A stretch of DNA of 54,584 nt from Heterotrichella gracilis (Eukaryota; Sar; Xanthophyceae; Tribonematales; Xanthonemataceae). The position numbers were made by a program, and so were the translations under genes. The stretch is taken from positions 1 to 54,584 of the forward strand of contig JAULBX010025919.1 of assembly GCA_032358255.1 (NCBI GenBank), given 5' to 3'. Numbering within the stretch: position 1 is the first letter of the stretch; the number at the start of each line of letters is the position of its first letter. Shown one piece after another: positions 318 through 51,300 of this stretch. A model generated the notes under the pieces. That model was not told the DNA's origin and did no database searches. It saw only the letters and a list, made by a program, of their open reading frames with translations.

Positions 318-3300
318 GCCACCACCACCACCACAACTGGGTCAGGCCGGGGCCCCAGGCCCGCTGAATGCGATCCCCGGGACCCCCCTCGGCCCGACGT
401 CAAGGAAGAGGAAGATGCGCGCATAGGGATCCCCAACAACCCTCGAAATTCCCCCGTAGCCCCCGGGACCAGCGGAGCCCCCGCGCCACCCCCCGGCGCC
501 CCGACCAACCACGGTCAGGGCGCATCGGGGGGGGCATCATCCATGCCCTTGAGCACTGCTGAGCTGGCGAGCATGAGTGAAGGGGACCTGGTGGCCCTGT
601 GGAAGGAGTACACCAATCGCCTGGCAGACATTTTGGCGGACACCAAACATGAGATGGGCAGTGCTGCTGAGGCCAAGATGCATGACCTCCTCTCCCAACT
701 GGTGCGCGTAGTGTGGTAGCTTTAGCATCAATGGGTTGATTAATCGACTAATTAGGCTTAATAGGCGTAGCTAGTATGCCTTGCCGCCAATGTGCATCAG
801 TTACACAAGCGCATGTGCCAATAGTACCAACGATGGCGCTGGTGGACTGGGGAGGCTGTGCTTAGGATGGTGAGGATGATTACTATGGTAGGGGAGGCTT
901 ATTCGTTGAGTATGGTAGCGCTAGCGCAGGCGTGATTTGGGTAGGCTGGGCTACGTTGGGTGTGTTGGCTTGACGAAGGAAGCCTCGTGCCAAGTTGTGC
1001 ACTGTGGCGGAGGGACTAGGTAGACTGAAGCAACTGTAGTAGCTACCTTAGCTGCACCACCTGTGGTACCTGCATGAACAAGCACCACCCTTCGCCTGGC
1101 AGGCATACTGGCGGGTACGGGCAGGACATGGGCGGAGCTTCATGGCTTCGGTTTCTGGTCCATACGCGTGGCTGCGGCAGCCAGGCTACATGAACTGCTA
1201 ACCCTGTAGATTTGAACCCCGACATGTACAACATATACCCTTGGCGGGAGCTGTAGATCTCCTTCTTGTGTATCTCAATGCCGTCTCCTGTGCAAAGACG
1301 GCACAAGAGTCCCTTTGGAAACCCACTGCACTCCAGGGTGCTGACCATGTGTGGCTTTTCTGTGGCCTCCAGGGTGCGGTGCTTCAGAAGGTGTTTCTGC
1401 TCAACCCGGCCACCATTCGCGTTGTGGCAGCAGCGAGGCAGCATGAATCCCCGGAGCATGAGAGCTACGACAGCTGGCTGCGACGGGTGGTAAGTGGCCA
1501 CTAAATACTCCATTGATTGCAAAGCATATTAATAAAGCATAGACTGTTTTTAAAGCGTGAGAATTATGCATGAGACTGGCACGCTGTGTTCACTGATTGT
1601 TGATTGCTAATCTGGCTGTTCTGCGGGAATGCCCTCGTGACTAAATAATGTAAAGCATGAGGCCTACAATAGCTGGTGTTATGGTCATGCATGCCAATCA
1701 TTGCCATATGGGCAGTTTACAGGTGCACATCTGTTTCAGCCTCTTTTTCTTGTGTGGCTGTTCCATTTATTTTCTTCTCACACAGGAAGCATAGCCTTTC
1801 ATTTTCTTTTATTTGCCTATGAATGAAAATATCAGAATTTGAATTTGTATCATTTATCAAACAATTTTGGAGTGGTATATTGCTTTGTGAGTGTATTAAT
1901 TTAGTTCTCCATCCACACAGCTCCCACACATGAGCAATGCATTAAACAGGCCCAGCACTCCTAGCTGGAGCAGCTGAACGTAAACAATATTCCATTTCAA
2001 TTTGTAATATACGAATATACTTTTTCAATTATCCTTGATACTTGAAGCCCACAGGAAAGCAGTCATTTCGTTCATGACATCCTGTGAAATACAAGTCTAC
2101 CTGGTTATAGCCCCCTGCGAGTCACCTTTTATGCTATCCAAGCAGCGACTAATACATTACTTCTAATTTTCTTTTTTGTTCCTTTTTCTGCAGGCCTCCC
2201 TCCACATCACTCCCCCCCAGCGGTCCAAACTGGCTCAGCTGCGCATGCTGTTCCTGGTGCAGCTGGCGGGGCAAGTGGAGCGGCGCCAGGGGCTGTGTCA
2301 ATCGCTAGCGGTAAGGACATTCATGTGTCAGCACCCCTGCCCACATGGGTGCTGACACATGCTAGGCAGAACATTTTGGTCGCTGCTTTTTTGCATTATT
2401 AGGATTACTAGAAGCAAATCTCCCGCAAGCAGTGCGGTTCCATGCGAGCACATTTGTGCAGCTGGAGCGGCGGCAAGGGCTGTGCCAGGCTTTGGTACGT
2501 TTACTTGCCTGCCAACAAGCGCGCTGACATATCCTAGTGAGGATTATTCTTCTTGCTTTTATTCTTTGTTAGCAGTACTAGCAGCAATTTAGTAGTATTG
2601 CAGGCCGTGTGGCTGTTGGTGCTGTTCATGCAAGCACTTGTGCGATGGCGGGGCAGGTGGAGCGGCAAGATGGTGTAGGTGATGTTCTAGCAGTGGATGG
2701 ACTAAATGACATTGGTTTTATTGCGGATGGTGTAGCAGCAGTGGATGGGTGCATAGAGATGCTGCGCCAGCATTGGATGGTGTAGATGGCGATGACAACA
2801 TTGAGTGGATGGGGTGGCAGCTGTGGATGGTGTACCAGCATTGGATAGCATAGATGGCGTACCAGCAGTGATGGGGGTAGATGTAAATGAAGGTGCTGCG
2901 CCAGCATAGCTACAGCTAGCAGTGGATGGTGTAGCTGGCGATGAGAACATTGAGTAGATGGGGTGGCAGCAGTGGATGGTGTGCAAGCAGTGGATGGTGT
3001 AGCAGCGATGGATGGGTGGATAGAGGTGCTGCGCCAGCAGTTGATGGGGTGGATGGCGTTGACAACATCGAGTGCATAGGGTCGAGCAGTGGATGCTGTA
3101 GATGGTGACCAACGGTGATGGTGTGGCAGCGATGGATGGGGTGGATAGAGGTGCTGTGGCAGCAGTGGATGGGGAGGTGGTGGCGATACCAGCAGTGGAT
3201 GGTGGAGATGGTGTACTAGCAGTGGTTGGATTAGGTGGCGTTGCTAACATTGAGTAGATGGGGTGGCAGCAGTGGATGGTGTGCAAGCAGTGGATGGCGT

Positions 3301-5723: not shown

Positions 5724-6050
5724 CACATTCCAAGGGGGGGGAAACAGGCTTCTGGTGGTGCAGGGGCGCAGCCACTCTTATCCCCACTCAGCGCCAGGCA
5801 CCACATGCGCCCCGCAATAACACGTTCCGGGGGGAACAGGCATCTGGTGGTGCAGAGGCGCAGCGCCCATCCCCCCACCTGCCCCCACTCAGCCCCAGGC
5901 ACCACATGCCGCCTCCACAATGACATATTCCGGAGGGGGATAAGCATGTGGTGGTGCAGAGGCGCAGCCCCTCTACCCACTCTACCCCAACTCAGCCCCC
6001 ACTCAGCCCCAGGCACCACATGCCACCCCCACACTGACATCATTCCAGGG
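5686..6050 (+). repeat. 100-bp tandem repeat containing the stop codon
   Basis: Four copies of a 99-114 base unit begin with CTCAG(T/C)(C/G)CCAGGCACCACAT at 5688, 5787, 5888 and 6002. The first copy encodes the last residues and stop codon of the bZIP-like gene; the other three run into its 3' region. Confidence 0.85.
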
Positions 6051-8009: not shown

Positions 8010-8544
8010 TGCCACCGTAATGACCCGCGAATGGTGCATGAATCCCCAAAGTTGTTGCTCCCTGGGATTGGCGCTGCACTGCCACCCACAATAAAAAAGC
8101 TGGCACCGATGGCGTCAACCGGGGGAGTGCTGCCTGCACGCGGGGGGCGCCGGCCCAAAGTGGCGCCCAGGCTTGTATGGCAGCGCCTTGCGGCAGGTGT
8201 AGCAAAAGTGGGTGGTGCATGCCCAGCAGGTCATGTGGTTGCTGGTCCCTAGGATTGGCGCTGCCGTGCCCCCCACACATGCACCATGCCAAGCCCCGCA
8301 CATATGCTGCGCCTGGCACCGATGGCGTCAGTCGGGGGAGTGCTGCTTGCACGCGGAGGGCGCCGGCCCAAAGCGGCGGCCGGGCTTCCAGGGCAGCGCC
8401 TCGCGACAGCCGGCGGCAGGTGTAGCAAAAGTGGGTGGTGCAGGCCCAACAAGCCATGTGGTTGTTGGCCCCTGGGATTGGCGCTGCCCTGCCACCCACA
8501 CATGAATCATACCAAGCCGAGGGCATGCTGCCACCTGGCATCAG
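8010..8544 (-). repeat. Tandem echoes of the last RBR ligase exon
   Basis: Directly past the stop codon, the terminal exon and its 3' flank are repeated at a spacing of about 212-217 bases (8328-8541 and 8116-8327, with a partial unit near 8015-8115). The copies retain recognisable stretches for CWACTTHFCYTC and for the GPAP..C end, but carry frame breaks and have lost the CPMCGQFNPKEG part. They are decayed duplicates, not extra domains. Confidence 0.85.
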
Positions 8545-11500
8545 TTAGTCCGGCGTGTGCTGCTTGCAGGCGGGGGGCGCCGGCCCAAAGTGGCGCCCAG
8601 GCTTGTAGGGCAGCGCCTTGCGGCAGGTGTAGCAGAAGTGGGTGGTGCACGCCCAGCAGGTCATGTGGTTGTTGCCCCCCTCCTTAGGGTTGAACTGGCC
8701 GCACATGGGGCACGCCAGGCCCCGCGCATGCTGCCGCTGGTAGGCGGGGGCAAGGCCCCTGCCGGGGGCCTGCTCCTCTTGATATTGCCTGCAGGGGGGC
8801 AATTGAATTTCTTACAGATTGTTCAGTTGCTCCAAGTGTTTTAGGGTTTAGGGTTTAGGGTTTAGGGTGTAGTGTTTACAGGTTGTTTGTTAGTGCTTGT
8901 TTGCGGACATGCCACGCGCCTCTGGTACCGCTGGGTACTGGAGGCCTGGGTTGGGGTGTAGGGTTCAGGGTTCAGGGTTTAATTGCATCCCCAGACTGGG
9001 GCTGGTAGGGGGTGCGGGCCCCTGCCACGGGCGTGGTCCTCCTGGAATTGCCCGCAGCGAAATACAGGGGCCTGCTGAAATTGCCTACACCACAGATTCC
9101 ATCATAGATTCCACCATACACTACATGCACCTCCATGTGACCTGCATAGACTGGTTCCACGCAACACTGCCCGCCACGCCGTCACATGCACCACACCAAG
9201 CGAGACGAGTTGCAGAGTTTAGGGTGTACGGACGTTTCCATCTAGTTTGCCCATCGTAAGAGCTTCGCCTCGTTGAGGATTTAGGATTCAGAATTCAGGG
9301 TACCATGGTTTAGGGTTTAGGGTTTAGAGCGTATGCACATCTCCATCTGGTTTGCCCATCGCAGGATCTCCGCTTCATCAACAAGCACACAGTTTAGGGT
9401 TTAGAGTCTGGGGTTTCAGGTTAAGGGTTTGGGACTATAGGGTTTAGGGTGTACGCACATTTCCATCTGGTTTGCCCATCGTAGGATCTCCGCTTCATCA
9501 AAGAGCACGCAGTTCCCCTCCCGGAAATGCGCGTAGGGGTCCGTCTTCTTCAGCTGCTTGCTGCACCTACAGGCATGCAAAGTACTGGTGAGGAACCGCC
9601 TAGGGTTTAGGGTTTAGGGTTTGCCACCTTGGAAATGCGCGTAGGGGTGTTCCTCCCCTAGCTGCTTGCTGCACCTACAGGTAGGGGGGATACTGTGGGG
9701 AATACTGGTCAGGGTTTAGGGTTTAAGGCTGCGCTGTTGAATGGTTGTTGCATCAAGGTGCCAATGCACTCCACATTTTTCAAAAGCACTGGGGAACTGG
9801 CTAGGGTTTAGGGTTTAGGGTTTGAGGCTGTGGTGTCAAACAAGCTACTTGTTGCATCAAAGTGCCAATGCACAACACCCCATTCAACAGCACTGGCGAA
9901 CTGGCTAGGGTTTAGGGTTTAGGGTTTAGGGTTTGAGGCTGTGGTGTCAAACAAGCTACTTGTTGCATCAAGGTGCCAATGCACAACACCCCGTCAGATT
10001 AGGATTTATGGCAAGGAAATCCAGGATGTTGGGCAAGTTTGCTTGGGGTGTAGGGTTTATTACTGGGTAGTTTAGGTTTAAGCACGCGCACTTGTAGCAG
10101 ATGTAGGCCCCCCGGTTTAGGGTTTTGGGACAGTTTAGGGCTCAGCGCCGCGCTGTTGTAGCAGGAGTTACGGTTTTAGCATTCAACGCCGCGCACTTGT
10201 AGCAGGAGCAGGCCCCCCAGTTGCCGCACACAACCTTAACTAGGGTCCAAGGACAGTCGATTTAGGGTTTAGGGTGCAGCGCCGCGTATTGTAGTAGAAG
10301 GAGGAGCCCCGGTTCCCCCACACCACCTTAACTAGGGTCCAAAAAACAGTCGATTTAGGGTTTAGGGTTCAGCGCCGCGTATTGTAGTAGAAGTAGGAGC
10401 CCCAGTGCCCCCACACCACCTCGATCAGGGTTTATAGACAGTCGATTTAGGGTTTGGGGTTTAGGGATCAGCGTTTAGGGCTGCGCACTTGTAACAGAAG
10501 TAGGCCCCGCAGTTGCCGCACACCATCTTGTTGCACCCCTCGGACCGCTCGATCGCCATGTGGCAGCTTGGGCACTGCCGCGCACTTTCTTTGATGTGCT
10601 TCATGGAGAGCACCTCCTGGCGCAGGTCCTGGGCCTTGCGGGAGAGGGCGTCCGCCTGGTTGCGGTCTCCACGCATGCGCCGCTCCAAAATCTGCAGAGT
10701 CACGTATTGCCTTAATGATTTCAACAACAGAAACTGCAATTGCGGTGTAATGTACTGCCGCGCGCTTTCCCTAATGTGCTGAATTGAGAGCACCTCCTGG
10801 CGCAGGTCCTGCGCCTTGCGGGAGAGGGTGTCAGCCTGGTTGCGGTCCCCGCGCAGGCGCCGCTCCAAAATCTGCACAGTGGCACAGACCATCGTCGCTT
10901 TCGCCACAACAGGGGCTGCAGCTGCGGTTTCAAATACTGCTGCGCGCAATGCCAGGTGATTCTTGTGAAGAACCTCCCGCCTTGAGCGGGGCATGCACGG
11001 CGACCATAAACTTTGAATCCTAAACAGGTGGACGAGCTCTCCTCCCACCACCACCACCACCACTACCACCACCACCACCCACCGCTAGTTGCTCCTCAGG
11101 TGACATGCATGTCTCGCCCGGGTGCCACCCCCGGTTGCACAGCGTGCAGTAGGCAAGGAAGCAGTGCGCGCACTGGGCGCAGTGGTCGCTATCCTCTATG
11201 CACACGCGCGCGCAGCGGGGGCAGTAGACCACGTCCGGCATGCGGTCCAGGGACCGCTGCAGGGTGAGTGATTCCCAGCGGGTGTAGTCCTCGGGGGAGA
11301 GCAGGGAGGAAAGGACCTGGGGAGGGCGTGGGTGGTGGTTTTGGATGTGATAGTGTGTGGGTTGGTTGGGATTGGGATGGGTCAAAGCTCGGGTAAGGGG
11401 TGCACACCCGCGCGCTGCGGGGGCAGTACACTACTCAGGGAGGAAAGCATCTGGGGAGAAGATGCGGGGAGCAAAACGTCAGCAGAAACTGGAAAAACTG

Positions 11501-13481: not shown

Positions 13482-18577
<5,096 letters not shown>

Positions 18578-20494: not shown

Positions 20495-20946
20495 AGAGCC
20501 AGCACAGCCGCCACTGCTGGAGGCAGCAACGAGGGTGGTGAAAAACACAGAGTTGAGACACAAGGTGGACCGATCATTGTGATGCCCATTGACCCCACGC
20601 TCCAACCGCCCCTTCTTCAGCCGCGTTACGATGTCAACCAAGGTGGGACCAACGTCGATGACACTGCAGGACACTGGTTCTTGTTGTCTGTTGCTTGGGT
20701 AGCCTTGAAGCAACCCCTGTAGCCTTACCCATCTCCTTTTCGAGCTCAGCTGGGGGGACCACAGGGGGTGCTTGAAAACCACCCAAGCATCAGGAATCAG
20801 GAACCAGGCGCTTGCAGTGTCATCCACGCTGGCCTCACCTTGGCTGACATCGGGCAACGGCTGGGGAAGGAGCGGTTGGACTTTGAGCAGCTGGAGAATG
20901 CGCAGCCAGGCAAACCAAGCCACTTCAGTGCACCAGCTGGACGATG
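20370..20946. repeat. Direct and inverted echoes of a terminal exon
   Basis: The end of the small gene (DCSLIDAGLTMIDIGMRQEK) recurs inverted at about 20556-20680 (CSVIDVGPTLVDI on the minus strand) and again direct at about 20815-20946 (CSVIHAGLTLADIGQRLGKE, running to a stop). The three copies differ by substitutions and small shifts. Neighbouring inverted copies could form a hairpin in RNA. Confidence 0.8.
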
Positions 20947-29300: not shown

Positions 29301-32300
29301 CAGGGGAGGGTTAATGGGGTTCAGATTTGGCACATGGCGCATCATCACATGCACTTGGCATGGGATACAATTATACTTTTAAAACAATATGTACCAAAGT
29401 GTTTTCATTTTGACAAGCACTAAGAACCAAGATTAGTCACCATGCCAATGGCATGGCGTTGCCCATGTCGCCGCCCCACGTACCGCCAGCGCGCACCCCC
29501 TGGTCAGGATCTCCTCGCAGAACAGCGTCGACACAGGGCTAAATTCATGAAATAATTAAGATAATTTAATTTTCCAACCAACATGTACCAAAGTGTGTTG
29601 TCAATATTTTCATTATGACAAAGAATTATGACAAAGATCTCTGACCATGCCAGTATACATATAGGCATGGCGTTGACGCAACATACCGCCAGTGCGCGCC
29701 CCCTTGTCAGGATCTCCTCGCGGGACAATGTCGACATGTTGGAGGTGCCCACTGTTGGGGTGGGGTCATCCATGGTGTCGTAGGAATCCACGTCGCTCTC
29801 GTAGCCCTCCAGAGACTGCTGCTCGTCCAGCGCCCGCCTCAGCAGCAGGATGGCCGCCACCATGGCCGTCACAAGCACTGCACCCACCATTGAGCCGTTA
29901 GTTTACTGGAAAATGCCTAATTTATAATATTTTATTAAAAACAGGCTTTCATTGATGTAGAAATAGTATGAAATGCACACTTTGGATCGTTTTCGTTCTG
30001 TAGCCCTCCAAGAACTGCTGCTACTCCAGCGCCCGCCTCAGCACCAAAAATGGCCGTCACCACTGCACTTGTAAGCTGCGTGACTGGAACTCAAGTAGCC
30101 TGAGCCACACCATGCCGGCCAATACATTGGAGTACCCTACCTACCACCTGCGCCGCGCTGTACTGCCCAGACTCAGCCAGCTCCAGGAGCTTGCGGTCCA
30201 CAGGCAGCCCCCACACCGCTGCAGTTTGTAGGGTTTAGGGTTTAGGGTTAAGGATGAGTACCCTACCTGCCACCTGCGCCGCGTTGTACTGCCCTGACTC
30301 AGCCAGCTCCAGGAGCTCGGGGTCCCAGGGCAGCCGCCCGCACCGTTCTAGGGTTCAGGGTTTAGGGTAGGCGCCACCAGCGCAACACTGTGCCGCTGAT
30401 CTGGTTGCATGACTAAAATGTAGGTAGCTAACTAGCCCACCATGCTGGCCAAATAGCGTGCATTGACTTATCCTACCTGCCACCTGTGCCACGTTGTACT
30501 GCCCAGACTCAGCCAGCTCCAGGAGCTCGGGGTCCACAGGCAGCCCCCACACCGCTGCATTTTTTAGGGTTTAGGGTTTACAGTTTAGGGTCTAGGGTAG
30601 GTGCCCTACCTGCCACCTGTGCCGCGTTGTACTGCCCAGACTCAGCCAGCTCCAGGAGCTCGGGGTCCACAGGCAGCCCCCGCACCCGCGCCACCGCAAC
30701 CTGAACCTGCAATACCAAGAAATAAATGTAAAGCAACATCAGAATGAGCATTCTATATGAAGCAAGTATGATTACAATTATACTTGATCGAAATAGAGCA
30801 AGGTTAATAATTAGTAAACACACATCGAAATTTGAAATTCAAAACCGCCGCCTGTACCTGTGCGGAGGTCTTGGCAGAGGCCCCCTTGAGCTCCACCAGC
30901 CCCTGGCTACCCAGCACCCTCCCCTCAGTCACAACATGGGTGGCAAACCCCTTGACAGCCACCACCGAGCCCGCGGCTTTCTCCTCGAGGGTAGCGCCAT
31001 GCGCCCTGCCCTCGGTCGCCGCGTAGGCAGCAAACTCCTTGGCGGATACAGCCGACCCCGCGGCCCTCTCCTTGAGGATGGCACCCAGCGCCTGGCTCTT
31101 CTCCGATGCCTGGTCGACGTAGGGCTTGGCTGTGGCGGGGAACTCTGCGGCGGCTCCCTTGAGCTCCCCCCCTGTGGTGCGCATGGAAACCCCATTCAGA
31201 AACCCTAAACCCTCTGTTGGTTACTGAGTTTGCAGACACGGGGAGCTCCGCAGCGGCTCCATTCAGCTCCCCTCCTGTGGCACCCATAAAATACCCTTTC
31301 AAAACCCTAATCTGGAATCGATGCCTTATATTTTGCATTACCAACTGCAAATTGCGATTTTGGTGTTATCTGGGTCGCACATTTGTGGGCAGTATTCGCC
31401 ATAACGCGCCTCCTAACCCTACACCGTAACCCCCACCTTTTTCGCCCAGCCAGTCCACCGCGTGCCCAGCCTTGACCCTCGCCTCCTGGGCCAAGTCTCG
31501 GGCCGCTGGGGCGATGGAGGTCTCAAAGGTGGTTTTCACCTCACCTGCCGTGTTAGTGGCAAAACCCTGTGCGCTTGTGGCTACTGCTTGAGCCCGAGAG
31601 GACACCGAGCCTGCTGTGGCTTCGATCCAGGCCAGGAGCCCCGGCTTTGGTGCTGCCACCGATTCAGCCTGTGGGCGCGGGAGGGTTGGTGGGGGAACGG
31701 GGTTTAGGTTTATGGGGTAGCCAGGCCAGGAGCCCTGGCTTTGGTGCAGCCACCAATTCAGCCTGCAGCACAAGAGGTACTGGAGCTAACAGGGTGCGCT
31801 AACTGGGGCAATAGGATACAAGGGTTTAAGGGTGGGGTCCGCAGGCAAGGAACCCTGGCTTCGGTGCTGAACAGAGCAGAGGTGCGAAGTTGCTCAGCGC
31901 CACATGCGCAAGGAACAGTTCTCACCCGCCAATGCTGCTGTATTATCTGTCAGGGAATGGAGTGTGGGAACGTACCACAGTGTATGAAGGTGGTATCGCC
32001 CTTGCGACCTGGGGGTTGGCGAGTGCTGCGGCTAGCAATCCCGGGGACAGCTGCAGAACCTGCAAAAAGCAAGAATCCCCAGTAAGGCCCCAGCTGTCAG
32101 GGTCCGCCTCTGGGTCCAATAGCAGAGGGACTACTAGGCAGGGAGGTGCTACCAAGGGCTACCAAGAGAAGTGGTACTATCAGGCAGGGAGGTACAACCA
32201 AGGGGGGGCAAGCAAAAGGTGCCAATTTATGCCAGGAGGAGTTGAGAGCCAAAGCAAAGGACTCACTACCGAGAGCTGTCTACTCACCGTTACAAAGGGT

Positions 32301-33363: not shown

Positions 33364-34848
33364 ATGTGTTCCGACAGCAATGGGCCAAAAACCACCAGCA
33401 AACCTCCTGTCCAGCCCCTCCCGATGCAGCTTGCATGCGCTGGCAACCCAGTGGCCCTAGCCACAGGCGCTGGGCTGTCTCGCTCGGTGCCGAGGACTGT
33501 GCAAACCAGCAGGTACCTGCTGGGTAATTACCCCAATCCTACCACCATCCTACCACCGACGCCACCTCATGCTGACACGCAGCCCTCGTCTGCAGGTCTC
33601 GGCGTGGCCTGGTTCACTCATCTCCAACTTTGGTGTCTGAAGTGGGCCGTCAGAATGGCAGTGGGTTGAACGGCAAGGGAACCCTCAAACAGAGCAGGGA
33701 GAGCGACAAGTATGGTGAGTAGGGCCGTAGGTTGCAACCTCGGCAGTGCAGTGTCCTCGCCGCGCCTGGTTTCAAGGAGGCACACCCCGTGCGCTCTTCC
33801 TGTGTACGTGTGTTGCACTGGGGGCCAAGGTGTGGATGAAAGCGGTATTTGGTCTCCTCGGCATGCATGGTGCATGGGGTGTTTGGGCGTGTGCTGTGCA
33901 TTCCTTTCGTGTGGGCTACTCCAGTCCTGTCTACGTGTGAAAGAAATAAGGGGTGTTTCCTGCTTTTCCCAGGGCGCATCACCTTCCAAGGCGTGCACCA
34001 TGTGGCATTGCTGGTCGAAAACCTGGAGAGGAGCATGCAGTTCTACCAGGGCGTCCTGGGTACGTGTGGGCGCTGTGTGCCGTCGAACCCTGCCACTGAT
34101 TAAACGACGCCAAACCCAGTGGCACCCTGCCTGACCTTGCAGCTTGCCTTTTGCACGTGCACCTTGTGTCAGTGACCTTTGACAACAAGAGTGTTGGGCA
34201 CATGGTGTGGGCTTTCTCTTTCACCATGGCATGCCAGCCACCCTGTTGGGTTCTCTAAGCAGCGTCGCGAGATATAGAGGCTGGGAATAGGTGTCCACCT
34301 CCTCCACCTGGAACCACCAACACCATGGTCCCAAAGACCGTGAGACATGCCATGCACCTGCCCCAAAACCCATGTTCCCCATTTTGCACTAGAACACAAG
34401 GGTTTTGAACAAGGCATTGTTTTCAACCTTCTTAGGCAACACCGTCAATTGAGCCTGTACAGAACCCCTTCAACAGGACTGTATAGCGTGCTGCCAACAC
34501 CTTGGTGCACCCCTGGCTCATGTCCTTGCACCTCCTACCACAGGCCTCGAGATAAACCCCGACAGGCCGCACAACAAGCTGCCATACCGCGGGGCCTGGC
34601 TGTGGATTGGCCCTGAGATGATTCACCTCATGGAGCTCCCAGATCCCGACCCCAAGGATGGGCGCCCCGAGCACGGCGGCAGGGACCGCCACTTCTGCGT
34701 GGCGGTGGAGAGCATCGACCCAATCCAGACCCGCTTGGAGGAGGCGGGGGTGGCTGTCACCCGCAGCATGTCGGGCCGCCCCGCTGTGTTTTTCAGGGAT
34801 CCGGACATGAACTGCCTGGAGTGCGTGGAGGTGGAGCCGTGGAGGTGA
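33364..34848 (+). CDS. Plastid glyoxalase-I-like VOC protein
   Basis: Four phased exons: 33364-33512, 33596-33714, 33973-34059, 34544-34848, giving 219 residues. The first 80 or so are Ser/Thr/Arg/Gln-rich and look like a transit peptide; the in-frame ATG at 33424 is an equally good start. A single vicinal-oxygen-chelate domain follows: FQGVHHVALLVENLERSMQF, then NKLPYRGAWLWIG, MIHLMELPDPDP, GRPEHGGRDRHFCVAVE and FFRDPDMNCLECVEVEP. The metal-ligand pattern H (HHV), E (LMEL), H (DRH), E (LECVEV) is complete. It matches, from memory, the plant plastid clade annotated as lactoylglutathione lyase family (Arabidopsis At5g57040-like). The true substrate of that clade is not firmly known, so I do not claim methylglyoxal detoxification. 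The end of the last exon is echoed in the 3' region. Confidence 0.92.
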
Positions 34849-36170
34849 AAGGGCACGGGTTTGGAGGTCAAATTGCACGTTTGTTGCAGATGACGAGAGC
34901 CCTGTTTGAGGAGCATTGAATTGGGTATGGTGGTTTTGAGACGTCAGGAGACATGAACTGCTGGGGGTGCGTTTGAGTTGAAGCTGTGGAGGTGAACAGC
35001 TGTTTAGGGTTTAGGGTAATGAGGTGAACCGGCAAGGTGGTGTTGAGGTGTGCACTTGACAAAGTCACGGAATTTTTGCAGCTGATTGAGCACACGATTT
35101 GAGAGAAAGTGGGGAAGAAAATTTACATAGGGATGTTGGTTTTCCGATGCTCGCTATCGTCAGTGTTTGACCAAGCACCAACAGCTTTTCCATATCGATG
35201 CCCAATGTACACTTCTATTTTGCCTTAAATGGACATTCCAGGCAATAAGCAGTAAGCCTTAGGGATAAGCGAGTGATATAGGTGTACCTTGTATACGTTT
35301 TGACAGGATTTTTATGATGAATGAAGGGTGGTGCGTCCTTCCATTAGTTTTGACAACTGCCATCATGGCACAACGGTTGCTGTATATGTACAATAGGTCT
35401 GATTTGAGCACTGCATCGCACCATCTATAGACGATCTGGGCGCAGCCATTCACAGCTTTACTGCGTGTTGCAGCTCCGCCGCTTCAGGGTGTGATTGCAC
35501 CTTGTTTTGTTGCGATTGATTCTCTTGCGATTTGCAACTCTGGTTCTCAGTCTGTGCTCTGTTTTCCTGCTGCGCACCTTGCATGCCTTCATGTGAGCGC
35601 CGTAGGCAGCCTGTAATATAAACATGTACCACCCCTTTCAATACTGCTGAGAAGAAAGCCGGTTGCCTGCGTGATGCACTGCGCCCTGCATGCTTTGCCA
35701 CTGCATGCTGCTGGCCTTAGCAGCCCTAACGGGCATACTGCACTGGGGTAGACTAGCCTGCAAACTTCCACAGGACAGGCACACGTCCTGTCTACTGCGT
35801 CTTCAACCACTGTGACTTTGATACACCTCTTGCTGCAAGGACACATGGCAATGGAAATTCTGGGCCCATGGCCGGCCATGTGGATCCCTCTTGAGAAAAT
35901 CTCAGAGGCTGGCTGGTTGTTTAAGCAGTAAGAAAGGGATTTAGCGGCACGATTCGCTCCCTCATACGTCTTTGCGCTGCGACTGGGCTTCTTGCTTCCC
36001 AAAAGCTCCATTTGGCGTGGGTTCTGTACTTTCCGTTTGTGGCATCGTTCTGTAGCAGGGGTGGCACCCCTCGCAGCATTGCCGGTTTTGAACCAGTGAC
36101 AACTGCCACACGGGCTTGATAGGCGTCCACACGCAAAGTTCTGTGGAACCCTCGTTTGGCTTAAACAGCC
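34849..36170 (+). other. VOC gene 3' region and spacer
   Basis: About 34940-34998 is a decayed echo of the last VOC exon (stretch GACATGAACTGC), followed at 35004-35019 by a GTTTAGGGTTTAGGG run, which is the opposite sense to most plus-strand genes here. No gene is supported in the rest; it should include the promoter of the ARID-PHD gene. Confidence 0.55.
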
Positions 36171-39100
36171 ATGGCTACACCAGTGGTGAAGTGGCGAGTG
36201 TTGGCCGTCTACAGCTGCGCAAGCGCCGAGTCTGTGCTAGGCTCCGATGAGAAGGGGCTGGGGGCGATCGAGGAGTTTTCTGACATGTCAGGCTCTGATG
36301 CGGAGGTGCGTTTTGGCCTGGTGAACAAACGTCAGCTAAGCTTCCTGTACGAAGCTGCAACAACCTTATGAGCTTGTGCAGTGGCAATGGACCCAACCAG
36401 TGCATGCCAAACTGGGACCAACTGCAACACAGTGGTAGCAGCCCCCTTCAACTGGCACAAAATCCAACAGCCTATGTGGCTTCATATAGGAACGTGCGTT
36501 CGCCCGACGGGTTGTTGTTAGACACATCTTGCATCATTTCTGACCCAACTTGTGAAGAGTGGATGAGCAATGAGGGGGGGTGCAGAAGCCCCAAGGTTGG
36601 ATGTGGTCACCACTACTTTTGCTGAAACGTCTAGTGTGTTGCAGATCCACGTGTTGAAGCAACCAAGCCTTGTGGACGTTCGACAAGAGCTGCAAGACTG
36701 GAAGCCCAACCTTGTGTACCTTTACAGCAGAGACCAGCCAGAGACAGAAGGAGCCAAACACATCAACCTTGCTCCTTTCATGATAAAGGAAACAAACTTT
36801 GACACAGGTAGGACTCCTCTTGGCCAGCCCAGCTAGAGCTAGCTGTCGTTCTTTGCATGCTAACCATACCTCGACCTGCAACATGACCGTTGCACAGGAT
36901 CACCTGCGAGCTTGCAGGCAGACAACCTGACCTGGCTCTTTGACGGCGTTGATGGTGTGGACACTGTGTACCTGGACTTTGCACGCAGTGAAGAACAAGG
37001 TATGCTGCCCGGCCTGTAGAAACAAGCTGCTTGCTACTGTCTGTCATTCCAGTCACTCCTAACGTTGCTAACCTGTGTATGGGCGGTTGCCATTCATGGC
37101 AGCGGTCGCTTGCTATCCAACTGTCATCTTGCTCACTGCTAACTCCCTTTGCTGTGTGCAGCCAATGCCGTTCGCGCCAAGGGGGTTCCCAGCGTGATCT
37201 ACTGGGCCGCAGCGGTGCCAGCCGATGCCAAGGTAGCAGCCCTGTTCAGCAGGGTGGTGTTTGCCTTCCTGCGCAACCCAACAGTGTCAGCAACAGAGGT
37301 GCGTAGCAGGGCCTTCGGAGTCACGGCTTGGTACCTGTTTTCACCAGCCATGCAGTTTCACTAGTGGTGTGGTTAGTCACTTCGTTGAGCCCCTCCAGTG
37401 TTAGCTCTGGCGTTGACCTACCACTACTGCTGTCTCTGGCTTATCACTAACACTGCCACAGGCGTATCATGAGCGCTGGCATAAACTGTCAACCCCATGC
37501 GCTGCAGGCCTATGCGCTGGCGAACCACGCGGTGCAAGTGCACTGCACCGCCCTCGCGGCAGGCAAGCAGCAGGCCCCGGCACTGCCCAGCATGGCCTCC
37601 CGCACGCCTCCCAACCTGCCCAACAATTCCTCGGTGCCGCTGCCAGTGCTGGAGGTGCGGTAATGGAGTGCTCCCACTTTTGTCACAGTCGCAAGCACGT
37701 CAGCAGTGCGGCCATTTTGGCAGGCGCCCTGTGCACAGCTTATACCCCATCTGCTAGAATCAAGATCATTGGTACTCAGTGCGGCGGTGCCCCTATACCA
37801 TGAAAGTGGTGAAATCTGGCGTGCATGGGTCCATTCAGGGGGCAGACCTCACCCTGGCGGATGTTGCTGATGCACGCCTGCTTGGAATTGGGAGGCGCTT
37901 TCTGCCAGGAACTCCCATGTGGACCTTTACCATGGTATGTTGACAACAGGCATTCTTGGGCCCTTGCAGGGGGTGGATTTGAGCAGGGGAGTGGCTGCTG
38001 CCATCCCTGGGTGGGAGGATGTGAGGCTGCTTGCGCCACATGCAGAGCTGCGCCTGCTGGTGTGCGGCCAGGCCTCGCTCATTGATGCACACCGGCTCAG
38101 GTAAGCCTTGGGGTGGGGCCAGGCCTGAATGGTTGATGCACACAGCGTCAGGTACGCAATGGCAACACAGGCATGCAGGTGGTTGCCTAATGAATGCATT
38201 CCAGCCATTTAGCTGCCAGCCTTGCACAGTTTTGCGCCATTCAGGGTTGCGGGCGTTGCCCCCTCCTCCTCCCCATTTCAGATACGCAGCCAGGCTGACA
38301 TGCTGCAGTTGGCACATGCAGCTTCTTCGAAGAGGTGCTGCATGCCATGCTGGTCAAGGAATATTTAGGTGTAGAGATTTCCATCCCCTGGCTTGTAATT
38401 AGGTTTCTCCCCTTAGCCAAGCTAGGTGTAATATCATCTTTGGCAATGTCAGCACAACATGAGGTCATGCTGGTCAGGGAATTGTGCATCTGTTCAGTCA
38501 GGGGCATCCATTAGGAGTAGAGATTTCATCCCTTGGCCAATGATTTAGGTTTCTCCCCTTAGCCTCAGAAAGAAGGGTGGAATAGGGGACCATGGCTCGC
38601 ACCATGGCACCGTGACCAACCAGATCCTCCCAGGTGTTGTTTTATACTCTGGACATGTCAGTTCAGCATGGTGCCATTTGCGTCTGCAGCTTTCTGGGAG
38701 AGGCGCTGCGGGCCATGCTGGTGATGGAGATGCGCCCTTGTCCAGTCATGGGTGTATGTACACAGGGACATGAGTGGGGTTTACCTCCCTGGCTGTTTTT
38801 ACGTAAGGTTCCACCCCTCCTCTAACATAGGGTTTGGTGTCACACCCTTACATGTGTCACTTGTGGCAAGGTGATAGGCTGACATACTGGTTTTGGCACA
38901 CGCAGCTTCCTGGGAGAGGCGCTGCGGGCCATGCTGGTGATGGAGATGCGCAGCCTGAGCGTGAGCCACATCATGCCATGCGACAAGACGCCGGCGCACC
39001 TGCCCCCAGGCTCGCATGCTGTGCGGTGCGACATTCGCAGCGTGGGCGGCGCGTCAGCCACCGTGGTGTTGGGCGGGCCCAGCAATGGTAAGCCTAAACA

Positions 39101-41760
39101 CAGGGGGTACAGCTGGTTGCACCTAATGGGTTTCTTGTGGCCATCTTTGCATGCTGCGCGGCGTGGGTGGGGCGTCGGCCACAGTGGTGTTGGGCGGGCC
39201 CAGCAATGGTAAGCCTAACCAAAGCATGCGGTTGTGTATCCGGTAACCATGTTCTGCTGGAGCTTTTTTCATGGTGGTGGGTTGGAACAGCAGATGTCTG
39301 GACATGGTCGCGATCGCAGCCAGCATGCATGCACCCCATCCGCTGCATGCACCCAGCGCCCACCGCCCTCCGCAGCTAAAAAATTAACCACTTAACTATA
39401 GTTAGTTAACAATTGCTCGCACGTAAAATATAGTTTTATAATTTCATATTTGATTAATTAGGGGTTAGGGTTTTATCTTTGCTGCGTGACCCCCACATTG
39501 CTGTGCATTACAGTGGTGAGCAACCACGCGCTGGTGGAGCACGCCCTGCGCCAAACCCTCGTGGCCGACGCGCTCAGCCTGCAGTTCAAGCTCCCACCCC
39601 CAGGCTTCCCCGCCCCCGTGGCGCGCACCTCCACCGCGGTGGCCTGCGGCACCTCGGTGGTTGATGCGCTGGTTGTCACCTCCGTGTGGGCGGTGCACAC
39701 GCTGCGGACCCTATGCCAGGACTCGGGCTACAGGGGCCTGGTGGCGCTGGGCATCGGCGCCGTGGGCGGCACGTCGGTGGCGGGCTTTGGGGCGAAGGAC
39801 GCGGCACGGTGAGTTAGCGGTTAATTACCAGCAATTCCGGCAAATTACACGCTGGTGTCAGATGGGCAGCCAGCCTTGCACATGTGTCGCTTGGCGGTTG
39901 GTATTGGCATTAAGTATACCAGTTGGTCTTGCGCGATCTGAAATCCTGGAGGATCAGGTAAGCCCATGTGAACGTTGGCTTACCTACCTCATATCTCTTG
40001 CCCCATGTACTGCATATGGTCATAGACAGGTCAAATACACGCATTTTTTATTTTTTTAAAATCACAGTGTATTTATTTATCTGTCCCACCAGGTACAAGG
40101 CCGTCATCGAGGCAAACCCGTCGCCAAAACCTGCGCCGCTCCCGCACCCCTCCTTCCCCGTCCCCTCGGGCCCCGCGTCCTACAACACCTCCCTTGCGCC
40201 CTCACGCCCCGGAGGCCCTGGCCCTGGCGCGCCCAGGCAGCTGAGCGGCACCCTCAACGGGGCGGGACCCAGTGAGCCCTCGGAGGTGTTTGTGCGGGGC
40301 GCTGAGCAGGTGGAGGTGCAGGCCCCTGGCCCAAGCAGGGAGCGCAGCGTCTGGGTCACTGGCAGGTACATTCCCCTGTATGGTTTTGACCCTAAACCCT
40401 AAAGCAAGGAGACGCAGTGTCTCCAATACTGGCGGGTCCATCGCCTAACCCCTAAACCCTGGAGCAGAGAGCGCATTGCTTGGAATACTGATGGATACAG
40501 TCCCTGGTACCCAACGCTTTTCTTCCCATTGTATGCTGTGGCAATGCAGCCCTACAACCCAGCCAATCTGGTGCATTGTGCAGTTGTACTTGCCCTCGCA
40601 TCCCCCCACCCCTCTTCACTCATTCTATCAATTCAACATGCTGTGGCGGTGCAGGCCAAACACCCTGAACCCTTAACCCTACATGCTGTGGCGGTGCAGG
40701 CCGCCGATCCGGGAGTGCTCACGCACCGAGTTCATGAAGGACCTGTGCGCCTTTTTGGCCGCTAAGAACCCCGGCAAGGTGTACAACCCCGCCACCTTCC
40801 CCGATGCGGTGCTGAACGGGGCCCAGCTTGATCTGTACAACCTGTACCGGGAGGTGGTCACGCGTGGCGGCTACAACGTGGGCAATGGTATTAACTGGAA
40901 GGGCCAGGTGTTCTCCAAGATGAAGAACTTCACGGTCACGTGCGTGCGCTGCTGGCTCTGGTTCTCTCGCAAAATTACAAAAATACAAAATTACAAATGG
41001 TGAATTTAACATATTGGCATTTCTATGGGGGATCATGCGTGTGTGCTTGCTCTATGAAATTAAGTAATTAAATATGTAGTGCAATGTATAGTGAACAAAA
41101 AGTATCAAACATACTGTGCAAAGGTGGCTGCCGTTCTGGTTGCCGTTCAGGAAAGCCCTTCCTCTGTAATCATACTAAAACTCGTTCCCCCTGCAGGAAC
41201 AAGATGACGGGCGTGGGCAACGCGCTGAAGAAGCACTACATGAACTTCCTGTTTGACTACGAGCAGGCGCACCCGCATGACATCATCAGCGACACATGCA
41301 CAATCTGCAAAGGTGGGGATCGGAGGTTACAATTCACTATGCCCATATGATTGACACTTACATAGGTATATCATTTACACCTCTTTTTTGTTGACCCTGA
41401 GTAAATTAATAATAGGAAAACATAGAGCACAGGCGGATTTGTCAATCCTATTGATTTTGGCGGTCTCACGCCATCTGCTGCATCTTGCATTTGCCTCTGT
41501 TACCGTTCTTTGTGCTGAATTGATGTATATGCTTAATTATCAACTAACTCTTAATAATCATTTGTTATCGCGCCTGTCTGGCTGCAGGTGGTGACGAGAT
41601 GGCCAACGACTGGATTAGCTGCGACGTGTGCGACGCATGGGTGCACTTCAGCTGCGACAAGCGCTCCTACCTGGGCAACTTCAAGGACTTTGCCAAGGGG
41701 TCGGGCAAGTCGTACACATGCCCCACATGCCATGAGGCCAAGAAGCAGCGGATGGCATAA
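36171..41760 (+). CDS. ARID-PHD chromatin protein (plant ARID4-like)
   Basis: Thirteen phased exons (36171-36305, 36645-36807, 36898-36999, 37162-37298, 37508-37654, 37839-37934, 37970-38100, 38906-39087, 39514-39808, 40093-40365, 40700-40939, 41197-41312, 41588-41760) give 729 residues. The N-terminal half (HVLKQPSLVDVRQELQDWKP; AKGVPSVIYW) and GTSVVDALVVTSVWAVHTLR resemble, from memory, the conserved region of Arabidopsis At3g43240. An ARID/BRIGHT DNA-binding domain spans about 555-670 (RTEFMKDLCAFLAAKNPGKV; LYNLYREVVTRGGYN; ALKKHYMNFLFDYEQ). A C-terminal PHD finger follows with full C4HC3 spacing (CTIC, CDVC, HFSC, CPTC). Such proteins bind DNA and histone H3 tails within nuclear chromatin complexes. 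The Pro-rich linker 470-550 is disordered. Echoes of exons 8 and 10 lie in the introns. Exon 6 is the least certain. Confidence 0.93.
38300..38740 (+). repeat. Upstream echoes of ARID-PHD exon 8
   Basis: The start of exon 38906-39087 (SFLGEALRAMLVMEMR) has an almost perfect copy with its acceptor at about 38680-38735 and a decayed copy at about 38300-38350. The flanking intron text (GGTTTCTCCCCTTAGCC) is also repeated near 38401 and 38548. Confidence 0.88.
39150..39216 (+). repeat. Downstream echo of ARID-PHD exon 8
   Basis: The last 60 or so bases of exon 38906-39087 (GGASATVVLGGPSN) and the GTAAGCC donor are repeated almost unchanged. Use of this second donor would need a new acceptor, and none is obvious. 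Confidence 0.88.
40400..40700 (+). repeat. Echoes of exon 10 end and exon 11 acceptor
   Basis: Two copies of the end of exon 40093-40365 (SRERSVWVTG part) lie at about 40402-40442 and 40459-40500. Two or three copies of the ATGCTGTGGCGGTGCAGGCC acceptor region lie at about 40532, 40639 and 40684. CCCTAAACCC and CCCTTAACCC motifs occur between them. Confidence 0.82.
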
Positions 41761-48524: not shown

Positions 48525-50862
48525 ATGACAGCCCATATGGCAATGTTGTCAAGCACTGCTGCCAGGGGCGGTTTGTTAGCGCCAATCCAGTGTGAGAGGT
48601 CAAATAACTCCACATACCAGGCGTTTCGGTGGCAATTGCACTCGGTAAAGGGTAGTTCGCTTCCAAGTGCCATATGCATGCATTGGCGGAGGCACTGGCG
48701 GAGGCATGCGGCATCCTGGAGATGCCAGCGGAGTTTATCAGTGCAAGCCCTGGCCTCGGTAAGGTTAATTGCTAGAGAGTCTCTTCATGCTGCGTTTGGT
48801 ATTATTTGTAAACGGGTTGCTGCGCTTGGTATGGAAGACTTGAGCAGCATCGACAGGACAGAGTTGAGTGCACTGTGGAATGCGAGAGAATGCGTGCAAA
48901 ATATGTATTGACTAGAGCAGCTGAGTCCATACTAAATGTCTAGCTGTGATGAATAGGAAAATCACCCGGCTGAGCTTGCAGACTGCGCCACCTTTGAGCA
49001 AGCTGTTGATGTCCTGGCCCACAAGGCAATCAGACTGAGCGCTATTACCCAAGGCCACAGGTAACACCAAACTGCCCGTAGTGTGATTTGCCTTGACAAA
49101 TCTACAGAATGAACAAGGTGTCTATATGCCTGGACTTCTATCAAGCATGTGGAAAGTGCACAGTCAGAGTTGCGTCCCGTTCCGAGGTTTTGTGTATTGT
49201 GACAGGTGTGTGATTGGCATCGCGGGCTCTCCAGGGTCTGGCAAGACCACAACATCGCAGCTAGTGAGCGCACGCATCAATGAGTTGGCTAATGCGGATA
49301 TTGCAGTGGTTGTGCCCATGGATGGTGCGAACCGTGAGACCTTGCTCCTTACCCTTATTAAGGGTATCTTATACTCCTCTGCCCTTATTCCTGCTGCTCC
49401 AAACTTGGCTCCTCTGTCCTGTACTTGATTGGATGGGATTTGACCTTGTTTTCTTACCTCAAGGCCCTTGCCTTACCAATGAATTATGCTGGGGCGCTAT
49501 ACCGCCCGGGGCATCTGTTCGCCCTAAATCCTAAACTACAAAACCTTGGTTGTTGCTCTTGGCTAAGGTTTAACCTGTATATTCGGTACTTGCAACCCAT
49601 GAATTGTATGTCTCTCAAAAGAGGCTGTATCGACATTCTCACCTTTGATTATGATTTTGCTTTCTTATATATAACACCTTTTTTAATTTTTTGCCCTTGG
49701 CTAGGGTTCCACCTGTACAAGCACCAGCTGGATGCCATGCCCGACCCTCTTGAGGCTTACGCCAGACGGGGTGCGCACTGGACGTTTGATGGGCAGGCGT
49801 TTGTGGAGTGCGTACAGGGGGTCAAAACACAAGGCGAGTGCTTCTTCATAAATTTAACTGTCATCTCAAGCGAGAGCACGCTCATGAAGCATTTGAAGCA
49901 ACACGTGGCATGTTCAGAAAATTGATTAAATGTCAAGTCATCGAGGAGGTTGTCGAACGAACAAGGCACCGCTGCTTTACAATATCTGCATGCATGGGCG
50001 TGGCGGCGCCTTTCCTTGACCATACTTTCTCTCCTGCCATGCCCTGTAAATGACATGTTTATGCCTTACATTTGCGAATGCCTCTATTAGGCACTGCCCC
50101 GACTCTTGCTCCTGCCCTGTAGACGATGTGCATGTGCCTTCCTTTGACCATGGCCTGGGAGACCCTATCGAGGGTGACATCCACGTGAAGCCGCACCACA
50201 AGATTGCCCTAGTGGAGGGTAATTACCTGCTGCTTGGTAGGTGCCCAGCTACCCAAAAGCTGCAGTTGCGGGGCAGTCGCCAATCCCTATGACTTGCATG
50301 CAAAGGATTGGAACTAGCACTTATTTATTTGTGCACTATGTATTTATCTTGCTGGAATTATGTTGTTGCGATAAGGGCCGCCATAGAAAGGCTTTGATAG
50401 CCTCTTCAAGACCCCAACCCTACACCCTTACAGCTGTCCACATAATACACTGACCTTCTGCCATCAGAGGGTAGTGCAAGTTGCCGGGAGGACTACAATG
50501 TATCACAGTGACATCACACGTGTTCACGTAGTGAAGTATCATGTCCGTAAGTAGTGGGGAAATAATAATAATATAACAACAGTAAGATATACAACGATAA
50601 TCTAACACCCAATTTGCCATTTTTGCCAGACGTCCCTCCCTGGATCGCCCTCCACGCCCTCTTTGATGAGACCTGGTTCATCGAGTGCTGCATCGACCAG
50701 GCCATGGCGCGCGTGTTTGCACGCCAGACCGCCATCGGGCTGGTCCCAGAGGAGTCCCAGCAGCGCATTGCCGGCAATGACAGACTCAATGCGCAGCAGG
50801 TGAACGCAACCAAGGAGAGGGCAGACGTGGTGGTCCCCTCCCTCCCCTTTGCAAAACCCTGA
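48525..50862 (+). CDS. P-loop kinase, uridine/pantothenate kinase-like
   Basis: Six phased exons: 48525-48758, 48957-49060, 49206-49324, 49705-49833, 50123-50236, 50630-50862; 310 residues. Exon 1 is Arg/Ser/Ala-rich and may be an organelle leader; it is the weakest part. The Walker A loop GSPGSGKTT is at about 120-128. Then come VVVPMDGFHLYKHQLDAMPD (the metal/substrate Asp region), YARRGAHWTFDG, VHVPSFDHGLGDPIEGDI, ALVEGNYLLL and LFDETWFIECCIDQAMARVF, and an Arg/Asn-rich lid ending NDRLNAQQV. This is the phosphoribulokinase/uridine kinase superfamily, close to the plant proteins annotated as P-loop NTPase (At1g03030-like, from memory). The natural substrate is not established. Intron 4 needs a GC donor (AAG/GCGAGT at 49834). 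The last exon has two echoes downstream. Confidence 0.87.
49834..49839 (+). promoter_or_regulatory. Non-canonical GC splice donor
   Basis: AAG/GCGAGT, otherwise an ideal donor context. It joins GVKTQ to DVHVPSFDHG in phase with the CTGTAG acceptor at 50122; no GT donor nearby does so without loss of conserved residues. Confidence 0.6.
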
Positions 50863-51300
50863 CTTTGAGGACAGTGGAAGAGGGTGGGACTGTGGGACTG
50901 TGTGCGGATTGAAATTGTGGATGAATCAAGGAATTTGCTCAACTGCAGCTTGCTGTTGGGCTGGGACCGGAGGAGTGCCAACAGCGCATTGCCGGCCACG
51001 ACAGACCCAATGCGCAGCAGGTTAACGCAACCAAGGAGAGGGCAGGCGTGGTAGTGCCCTCCCTCCCCTGTGCAAATTCTTGAAGTCGGTACGAGTCTAA
51101 GAGGGCAGTGGAGTTGGGCGGGCACTGTGGGACAGTGCGCGGGTTCAAATTGTGAATACCCTAAAGTAAGGGATCTGCTCAGCTTCAAATTGCTGTTGAG
51201 CTACAGCCAGAGGAATCCCAGCAGCACACGAACGTTGCCAGCAACGATGGGCCCAACGCGCAGCAAGTGAACGCAGGCATGGCAAGGGCTCACGTTGTGC
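50863..51300 (+). repeat. Two tandem echoes of the last kinase exon
   Basis: Copies of the terminal exon from GLVPEESQQRIAGNDRLNAQ onward lie at about 50946-51085 (close) and 51180-51290 (decayed). Spacing is about 217 and 240 bases. Both begin with a CAGCTT acceptor-like site but lack the upstream catalytic part. Confidence 0.9.

What the first reader, a model, noticed from the sequence alone, without database searches (positions are those of the whole stretch)
2455..51300. Exon echoes: genes flanked by partial copies of their own exon ends
In at least eight of the eleven genes, exon ends are duplicated in the neighbouring intron or just past the stop codon. Clear cases: SQD1 (17359-17640, 16846-16914), RBR ligase (8010-8544, 10075-10480), unknown protein (24937-25310, 25715-26155, 30140-30690), ARID-PHD (38300-39216), kinase (50863-51300), VOC (34940-34998). 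Copies usually include the splice donor or acceptor, range from near-identical to decayed, and lie next to the parent exon. Ordinary transposition would not give such local, splice-site-spanning copies. This suggests continuing short-range duplication, perhaps by break repair or replication slippage, and a steady supply of pseudo-exons and alternative splice sites.
Basis: seen in the sequence. Interest (0 to 1): 0.78.

Follow-up and report, generated by a model that had tools for sequence, protein, structure and literature searches.

The report
Local copies of exon ends
In this green alga many genes carry, inside the neighbouring intron, decaying copies of the ends of their own exons together with the splice signal; the copies are real, very local and over-represented at exon borders, which points to a short-range DNA-repair habit that leaves its mark where coding and non-coding DNA meet.

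Summary
In the window and 21 other loci (240,388 bp) there are 187 direct repeat pairs 30-1000 bp apart, against 14 inverted, none 3000-3970 bp apart and none in three shuffles. Offsets peak near 105 and 195 bp; 120 of 128 primary pairs lie within 230 bp. Of those 120, 66 span a predicted splice site and 18 are intron-only, or 0.27 per spanning pair; even placement, selection and neutral decay predict 0.93 (tandem) to 3.6 (gapped). By circular shifts donors are in excess (52 of 348, null 32.2) but acceptors are not (31 of 347, null 31.5). Loci chosen by gene family lean the same way on small counts. Echoes decay neutrally and echo GT is kept in 34 of 48. Tested pieces are single-copy; TTTAGGG-like motifs crowd the edges. 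Best reading: break repair making local direct duplications, filtered by selection, with a hot spot at exon-intron borders. Mechanism and hot-spot cause are inferred; no empty site or RNA was available, and gene models are mostly ab initio. New variant of a known kind.

The parts
14485..18577 (+). SQD1 gene (UDP-sulfoquinovose synthase), 7 exons: 14485-14924, 15172-15244, 15594-15899, 16401-16697, 17307-17408, 18099-18200, 18437-18577
   Evidence: spliced frame open end to end; PDB 1i24 match of most of it; homologues
15815..15906 (+). end of SQD1 exon 3 with donor, parent of echo
16034..16125 (+). echo of exon 3 end, offset 219, 78%
16250..16320 (+). echo of the interior of exon 4 (16455-16525), offset 205, 82%
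16632..16718 (+). end of SQD1 exon 4 with donor, parent
16847..16936 (+). echo of exon 4 end, offset 215; two exonic differences, both synonymous
17357..17647 (+). 111-bp tandem array of exon 5 end + donor + intron start (2.6 copies)
8051..8679 (-). three copies, spacing about 207-223, near the 3' part of the RBR ligase region; exon assignment here is not certain
10085..10529 (-). 93-bp tandem copies of the end of the RBR exon whose donor is at 10488/10489
10574..10947 (-). 180-bp duplication in the RBR ligase spanning the predicted acceptor at 10691
24936..25331 (-). four copies of an acceptor-side exon start (acceptor at 24982), spacing 98-115, with CCCTAAA-rich spacers
25707..26161 (-). three copies of an acceptor-side exon start (acceptor at 25774), spacing 186 and 189
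30103..30686 (-). exon end (predicted exon 30610-30706) and three echoes in the following intron
31627..31765 (-). acceptor-side echo pair, 93%, offset 94
34804..34996 (+). end of the VOC (glyoxalase) coding region and a copy past the stop codon, 83%, offset 146
38686..38951 (+). ARID-PHD gene: start of exon 38906 and its echo 216 bp upstream, 98%, homology beginning at GCAG
39036..39224 (+). ARID-PHD gene: donor-side echo, 90%, offset 121
50737..51299 (+). kinase-like gene: copies at offset 221 across the predicted donor at 50829

Best explanation
Exon echoes are the neutral leavings of a repair process that makes short direct duplications at an offset of about 105 or about 195 bp, in 34 of 120 cases as complete tandem copies and in 86 of 120 as a copy separated by unrelated spacer. 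Most likely a break or pair of nicks in the intron close to an exon border is filled in and rejoined, so that the exon end with its splice signal is copied into the intron. Events that land in coding sequence are removed by selection; those whose new junction lies in the intron (or past the stop codon) are harmless, because the outer splice site still works, and then drift. Shown here: copies that are real, direct and local, a two-peaked offset, neutral decay, more splice-spanning pairs than two simulated nulls give, and a tie to telomere-like motifs. Inferred: that breaks are the cause, that end fill-in of the kind done by CST-Pol alpha-primase is involved, and that chromatin at exon borders sets the hot spot and the size.
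For: 187 direct against 14 inverted local pairs and zero in shuffles. 120 of 128 primary offsets within 230 bp, 42 at 90-119, 9 at 140-169, 31 at 180-209. Intron-side block edges: donors 20 in the first 10 intron bases (null 2.6, sd 1.7) and none in the last 10 exon bases; acceptors 9 in the first 10 (null 2.7, sd 1.7) and 2 in the last 10 exon bases. Intron-only to spanning 18:66 against 0.93 or 3.6 expected. 12 spanning against 4 intron-only pairs in SQD1, 11 TCP1 and 4 tubulin loci. 570 differences by codon position 162/128/280, as for a neutral copy beside a constrained exon. Two spacers single-copy. Telomere-like heptamer 189 against mean 33.7 (max 77) of 133 permutations, 89 of 186 within 30 bp of a duplication against 36 (sd 9); 76 of 291 intronic block edges against 5.6% of intronic positions elsewhere, all rotations counted. 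In mouse and human cells small tandem duplications at breaks with 3' overhangs depend on CST-Pol alpha-primase fill-in (PMC8355091, passages); telomeric repeats are inserted at repaired breaks in mammals (PMC7215372, abstract).
Against: No allele or relative without the copy was found, so no event was seen before and after. Gapped copies are not explained by simple fill-in: their flanks show no similarity in the tandem register (mean z 0.18, standard error 0.20, 39 pairs), yet complete and gapped pairs share the same offset peaks. The hot spot has no demonstrated cause. The coverage shift test shows no excess at acceptors (31 against 31.5). Gene models are ab initio except SQD1 and those anchored by TCP1 or tubulin hits, and some counted 'donors' are themselves echoes called as exons (for example 16315 in SQD1; four of 52 have the partner upstream). 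Part of the motif excess may be the motif copied along. Very similar copies are few.
Confidence: 0.5

Rival explanations
1. No hot spot: tandem duplications fall evenly; selection removes those in exons, and exon copies stay recognisable longer because the parent exon is constrained. Exon echoes are then a by-product.
For: No donor-side block edges in the last 10 exon bases and a copy past the VOC stop codon fit selection; acceptors inside copies equal the shift null (31 against 31.5); in the pure-tandem simulation spanning pairs are already 37% of detected pairs.
Against: Observed 18 intron-only to 66 spanning against 0.83:1 in the most favourable (unweighted pure-tandem) simulation (binomial p 8e-6) and 3.4-3.6:1 for gapped copies, which are the majority; donors exceed all 500 shifts.
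Confidence: 0.2
2. Old tandem duplications whose exonic part is refreshed by gene conversion from the parent exon while intron parts drift apart.
For: In several complete tandem pairs the exonic part is far more alike than the intron flank (0.95 against 0.57 and 0.96 against 0.57); complete and gapped pairs share offset peaks; differences are codon-blind apart from the third-position excess.
Against: Blocks of 30-100 bp are short for conversion (general knowledge); three pairs show intron parts as alike as exon parts (0.97 against 0.90, 0.94 against 0.91, 0.93 against 0.94); gapped pairs keep no detectable flank similarity.
Confidence: 0.15
3. Functional echoes: alternative exons, decoy or backup splice sites kept by selection.
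For: Many echoes carry donor or acceptor signals and some have only synonymous differences (SQD1 16847, L025, ARID-PHD 38686).
Against: Over 88 echoes 294 of 570 differences are non-synonymous and codon positions 1:2:3 are 162:128:280; echo GT in 34 of 48 and AG in 18 of 27, no better kept than their surroundings.
Confidence: 0.05
4. RNA-templated copying of exon ends from nascent transcripts into nearby intron breaks.
For: Direct orientation, strict locality and homology mostly bounded near the exon border.
Against: 34 of 48 donor echoes are followed by GT and blocks run 0-50 bases into the intron, so the copied strand was not spliced; complete tandem copies with intron exist; the offset peaks are unexplained.
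Confidence: 0.05
5. Assembly artefact of short reads.
For: One repeat cluster holds a 100-N gap (26798-26897).
Against: 178 of 187 pairs are under 95% identical, with a codon-structured pattern of differences, and they are spread over many loci.
Confidence: 0.03

Closest known systems
Small tandem duplications at DNA breaks (CST-guided Pol alpha-primase fill-in, PMC8355091; paired-nick duplications in plants, seen only as a cited reference there)
   Same: direct, local, small, no mobile element; fill-in machinery shared with telomeres
   Different: here 86 of 120 pairs have an unrelated spacer, offsets cluster near 105 and 195 bp, and exon borders are over-represented
Intron gain by tandem genomic duplication (Drosophila, PMC2891723, abstract and outline; potato RdRp, PMC4974935, listing and start of abstract)
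   Same: local duplication touching splice signals
   Different: there a duplicated coding segment becomes an intron; here the intron exists already and receives a dead exon copy, in 41 of 44 donor cases at least 38 nt before the next predicted exon
Filler DNA at plant break joins (recalled, not read)
   Same: short copies of nearby sequence at a join
   Different: recalled fillers are usually shorter and of either orientation; these are nearly all direct
Interstitial telomeric sequences inserted at repaired breaks (PMC7215372, abstract)
   Same: telomere-like motifs at presumed repair sites
   Different: here single or few heptamers beside duplications; insertion not shown
Introner elements (recalled, not read)
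   Same: small insertions tied to introns and nucleosome spacing in algae
   Different: no dispersed family seen: the two spacers searched are single-copy

Membership tests
Small tandem duplication at breaks | two copies in direct orientation side by side | tested here: inconclusive
   34 of 120 pairs within 230 bp are complete tandem (aligned length at least 0.85 of offset), 86 gapped
Small tandem duplication at breaks | no dispersed source element | tested here: met
   two spacers and one parent exon gave only themselves in the genome; only these three pieces and the SQD1 array were searched
Small tandem duplication at breaks | arises at a break and needs CST-Pol alpha or Ku | not testable with these tools
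   needs mutants or induced breaks
Intron gain by tandem duplication | upstream exon end repeated directly before the acceptor of the new intron | tested here: not met
   of 44 donor echoes with a following predicted exon, 3 abut it (distance 0) and 41 lie 38-827 nt before it, median 273.5; 4 more reach no exon
Tandem exon duplication / mutually exclusive exons | whole exon with both splice sites copied | tested here: not met
   2 of 120 pairs hold more than one splice site in the parent block, after echo-exons had been relabelled as intron
Introner elements | many similar introns dispersed over the genome | tested here: not met
   the two spacers searched are single-copy; other introns were not searched
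Interstitial telomeric sequence | telomere-type repeats absent from the empty site | not testable with these tools
   no relative or allele; motif excess only

The most novel reading that the evidence does not exclude
Exon-intron borders are a genome-wide hot spot of break repair in this alga, with a chromatin-like quantum (about 105 and 195 bp) and telomere-type end processing, so that introns are steadily written over with copies of the neighbouring exon; the sizes would report nucleosome or linker geometry at exon borders.
Probability: 0.25. Interest if true: 0.85.

Novelty: new variant of a known kind. Interest (0 to 1): 0.6.

Why it matters
It gives a countable footprint of a small-duplication process in an ordinary genome, shows how introns can be filled from their own exons, and makes a testable link between exon borders, duplication size and telomere-type end repair. 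It also warns that gene finders may call such echoes as exons: of 437 predicted exons in my larger models, 46 were relabelled as echoes.

Tried and rejected
Even placement with selection and decay was simulated in two forms (2600 trials each) and did not reproduce the shortage of intron-only pairs, also after reweighting to the observed ages. A first flank test against other introns suggested residual similarity (10 of 41 at p 0.05) and one search gave many flanks above random; the first lacked a control for local composition and the second included the block edge, and a shuffled control left no clear signal (5 of 39 at p 0.05, control register 2 of 39), so I dropped the claim that all gapped copies are decayed tandems. 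A middle copy in the 195-bp class was sought: 9 of 38 at p 0.05, so a minority only. Three similar tubulin paralogues (and a fourth tubulin locus) were fetched to find an empty site: similarity between paralogues covers little beyond the exons, and no local copies were found in any of the four. Literature: among the rows listed by searches I saw no paper on this pattern; lists were capped, only titles and abstract starts were seen for most, and most subscription papers are not held. Rows left out: window beyond 52700 (low-complexity repeat) in most counts; pairs with an intermediate copy (183 to 128); pairs over 230 bp from the category counts; gene models under 450 coding bases; 8 of 96 echoes without a clear open coding frame or with under 18 sites. 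The 88 echoes left share parents (about 77 distinct parent places), so they are not independent. L003 and L004 (contig C1, GC 0.36) were left out as not nuclear-looking. Of the 14 contigs with TCP1 hits I fetched 11; of the tubulin places four loci.

Full report
What the window is. The window is the whole contig C341 (54,584 bp) of a 68.5-Mb genome in 903 contigs. The SQD1 protein spliced from 14485-18577 groups with Parachlorella kessleri, support 100/97, in a tree of 39 rows picked from the hits, so it is most likely a chlorellalean green alga (order recalled); no tool gives a name. The assembly has one 100-N gap here, at 26798-26897.

Observation. Self-comparison gives 73 direct local pairs (under 2.5 kb) in the window against 5 inverted. 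I wrote a small gene finder, seeded with SQD1 and TCP1 exons and then self-trained; it places SQD1 exons 2 to 7 and the donor of exon 1 exactly, misses the SQD1 start, and adds false exons in SQD1 introns, most of them echoes. SQD1 was in its training set, so this is not an independent test. Of 437 exons in models of at least 450 coding bases, 46 were relabelled as echoes; the false exon 16173-16315 escaped that filter. Nine of 11 such models in the window have an echo spanning a predicted splice site, three of them weak.

Beyond the window. With 17 nuclear-looking 10-kb loci that I picked across contigs and four TCP1 loci added (240,388 bp in all), there are 187 direct pairs at 30-1000 bp, 14 inverted, 0 direct at 3000-3970 bp, and 0, 0, 0 in 400-bp block dinucleotide shuffles. 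In the first look four of the 17 loci had none and others up to 27% of bases in copies. After leaving out the window's low-complexity end and pairs with an intermediate copy, 128 remain; 120 have offsets within 230 bp, with 42 at 90-119, 9 at 140-169 and 31 at 180-209. Of the 120, 34 are complete tandem copies and 86 gapped; both kinds show the two peaks.

Position. The 120 pairs divide into 42 spanning a donor, 24 spanning an acceptor, 2 with more than one splice site, 17 with an exonic parent but no splice site, 3 exon to exon, 18 intron-only and 14 outside genes. 52 of 348 donors and 31 of 347 acceptors lie inside a copy; circular shifts give 32.2 (sd 4.8, maximum 47 of 500) and 31.5 (sd 4.7). 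So by this test the excess is at donors only. The other copy lies on the intron side for 48 of 52 donors and 27 of 31 acceptors. For donors, the intron-side edge of the block falls 20 times in the first 10 intron bases (null 2.6, sd 1.7), 14 times in the next 10 (null 2.5), never in the last 10 exon bases and 9 times further inside the exon; for acceptors 9 times (null 2.7, sd 1.7), 7 (2.6), 2 and 12. For 14 gapped donor pairs of at least 86% identity, identity is 0.97 just inside the exon, 0.89 at +1 to +5, 0.41 at +11 to +15 and about chance beyond +25. Clear cases: L025, a TCP1 gene, where 54 exon bases plus GTGG recur 113 bp downstream with one synonymous change, and the ARID-PHD gene, where GCAG plus 46 exon bases recur 216 bp upstream with one synonymous change.

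Is this only geometry and selection? I simulated duplications placed evenly on these annotated loci, rejected those whose junctions broke exons or splice cores, and let copies decay neutrally beside constrained exons. Intron-only pairs per spanning pair: 0.83 for complete tandem and 3.4 for gapped, or 0.93 and 3.6 after matching the observed ages. Observed: 18 to 66, or 0.27. Against the unweighted pure-tandem null the binomial p is 8e-6. In loci chosen by gene family plus SQD1 there are 12 spanning pairs, 4 exonic but not spanning, 4 intron-only and 3 outside; 9 of 103 donors and 3 of 101 acceptors are hit. Without SQD1 this is 9 spanning to 2 intron-only, small numbers. All four tubulin loci and four of the 11 TCP1 loci had no pair at all in that tally. 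The simulation depends on the gene models, on assumed copy lengths and on an assumed indel rate.

What happens to echoes. In 88 echoes (of 96; 8 dropped), 570 differences over 4701 codon sites fall 162, 128 and 280 on codon positions; 276 are synonymous and 294 not. By my reckoning a neutral copy beside an exon that changes almost only at third positions should give about 1:1:1.7-2, which fits; a translated copy should not. Echo GT is seen in 34 of 48 and AG in 18 of 27. I find no sign that echoes are kept for splicing or coding.

Mechanism. Two spacers and a parent exon gave only themselves in the genome, which speaks against a dispersed element for those pieces. In gapped pairs the sequences that follow the two copies are not alike in the tandem register (mean z 0.18, standard error 0.20; control 0.12, 0.21; 39 pairs), although several complete tandem pairs keep such similarity. 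Telomere-like heptamers are in excess in introns (1.3 per kb against 0.04 in exons) and 89 of 186 lie within 30 bp of a duplication against 36 (sd 9) by shifts; at intronic block edges 76 of 291 against 5.6% away from duplications. Part of this excess may come from the motif being copied along. In mouse and human cells small tandem duplications at breaks are made by CST-guided Pol alpha-primase, the complex that also fills in telomeres (PMC8355091, passages), and telomeric repeats are inserted at breaks in mammals (PMC7215372, abstract). I therefore favour break repair with end fill-in. That exon borders are hot because of nucleosome and linker placement is a guess that would also account for the sizes. 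The gapped form remains the weakest point.

Literature. PMC2891723 (abstract and outline) and PMC4974935 (listing and start of abstract) describe intron gain from tandem duplication, a different outcome: here 41 of 44 donor echoes with a following exon lie at least 38 nt before it. PMC3446292 (passages) on the trebouxiophyte Coccomyxa gives 7.0 introns per gene and 7.2% repeats; the passages shown mention no exon echoes. The rows listed by searches showed none either. Work on paired nicks in plants was seen only in a reference list; filler DNA and introners are recalled.

Verdict.

Noticed in passing
window 46501-46803, 1-132 and 39932-39988: A dispersed repeat of about 160 bp, here as a head-to-head inverted dimer and in single or partial copies; many copies at 93-99% identity across the genome (78 matches listed; 776 first-look candidates, 40 scored).
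   Followed up: partly
contig C1 (L003, L004): An 894-kb contig of GC 0.36 with a tubulin/FtsZ-family match in one open frame of 534 aa; probably a bacterial contig in the assembly.
   Followed up: partly
window 52737-53719: Long low-complexity stretch of 24-base repeats, proline-rich in one frame and open on both strands.
   Followed up: no
window 26506-27199: Near-identical copies around a 100-N gap; copy number may be an assembly effect.
   Followed up: no
window 20601-20880: A 280-bp stretch that matches its own reverse complement at 72%.
   Followed up: no
L033-L036: Four tubulin loci have no local copies, although 6 of 11 TCP1 loci have splice-spanning or other exonic ones; expression level may matter.
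   Followed up: no
introns of the sampled loci: TTTAGGG/CCCTAAA heptamers are 5.6 times as common as permutations of the same letters, and 95 of 137 intronic ones read C-rich on the sense strand.
   Followed up: partly
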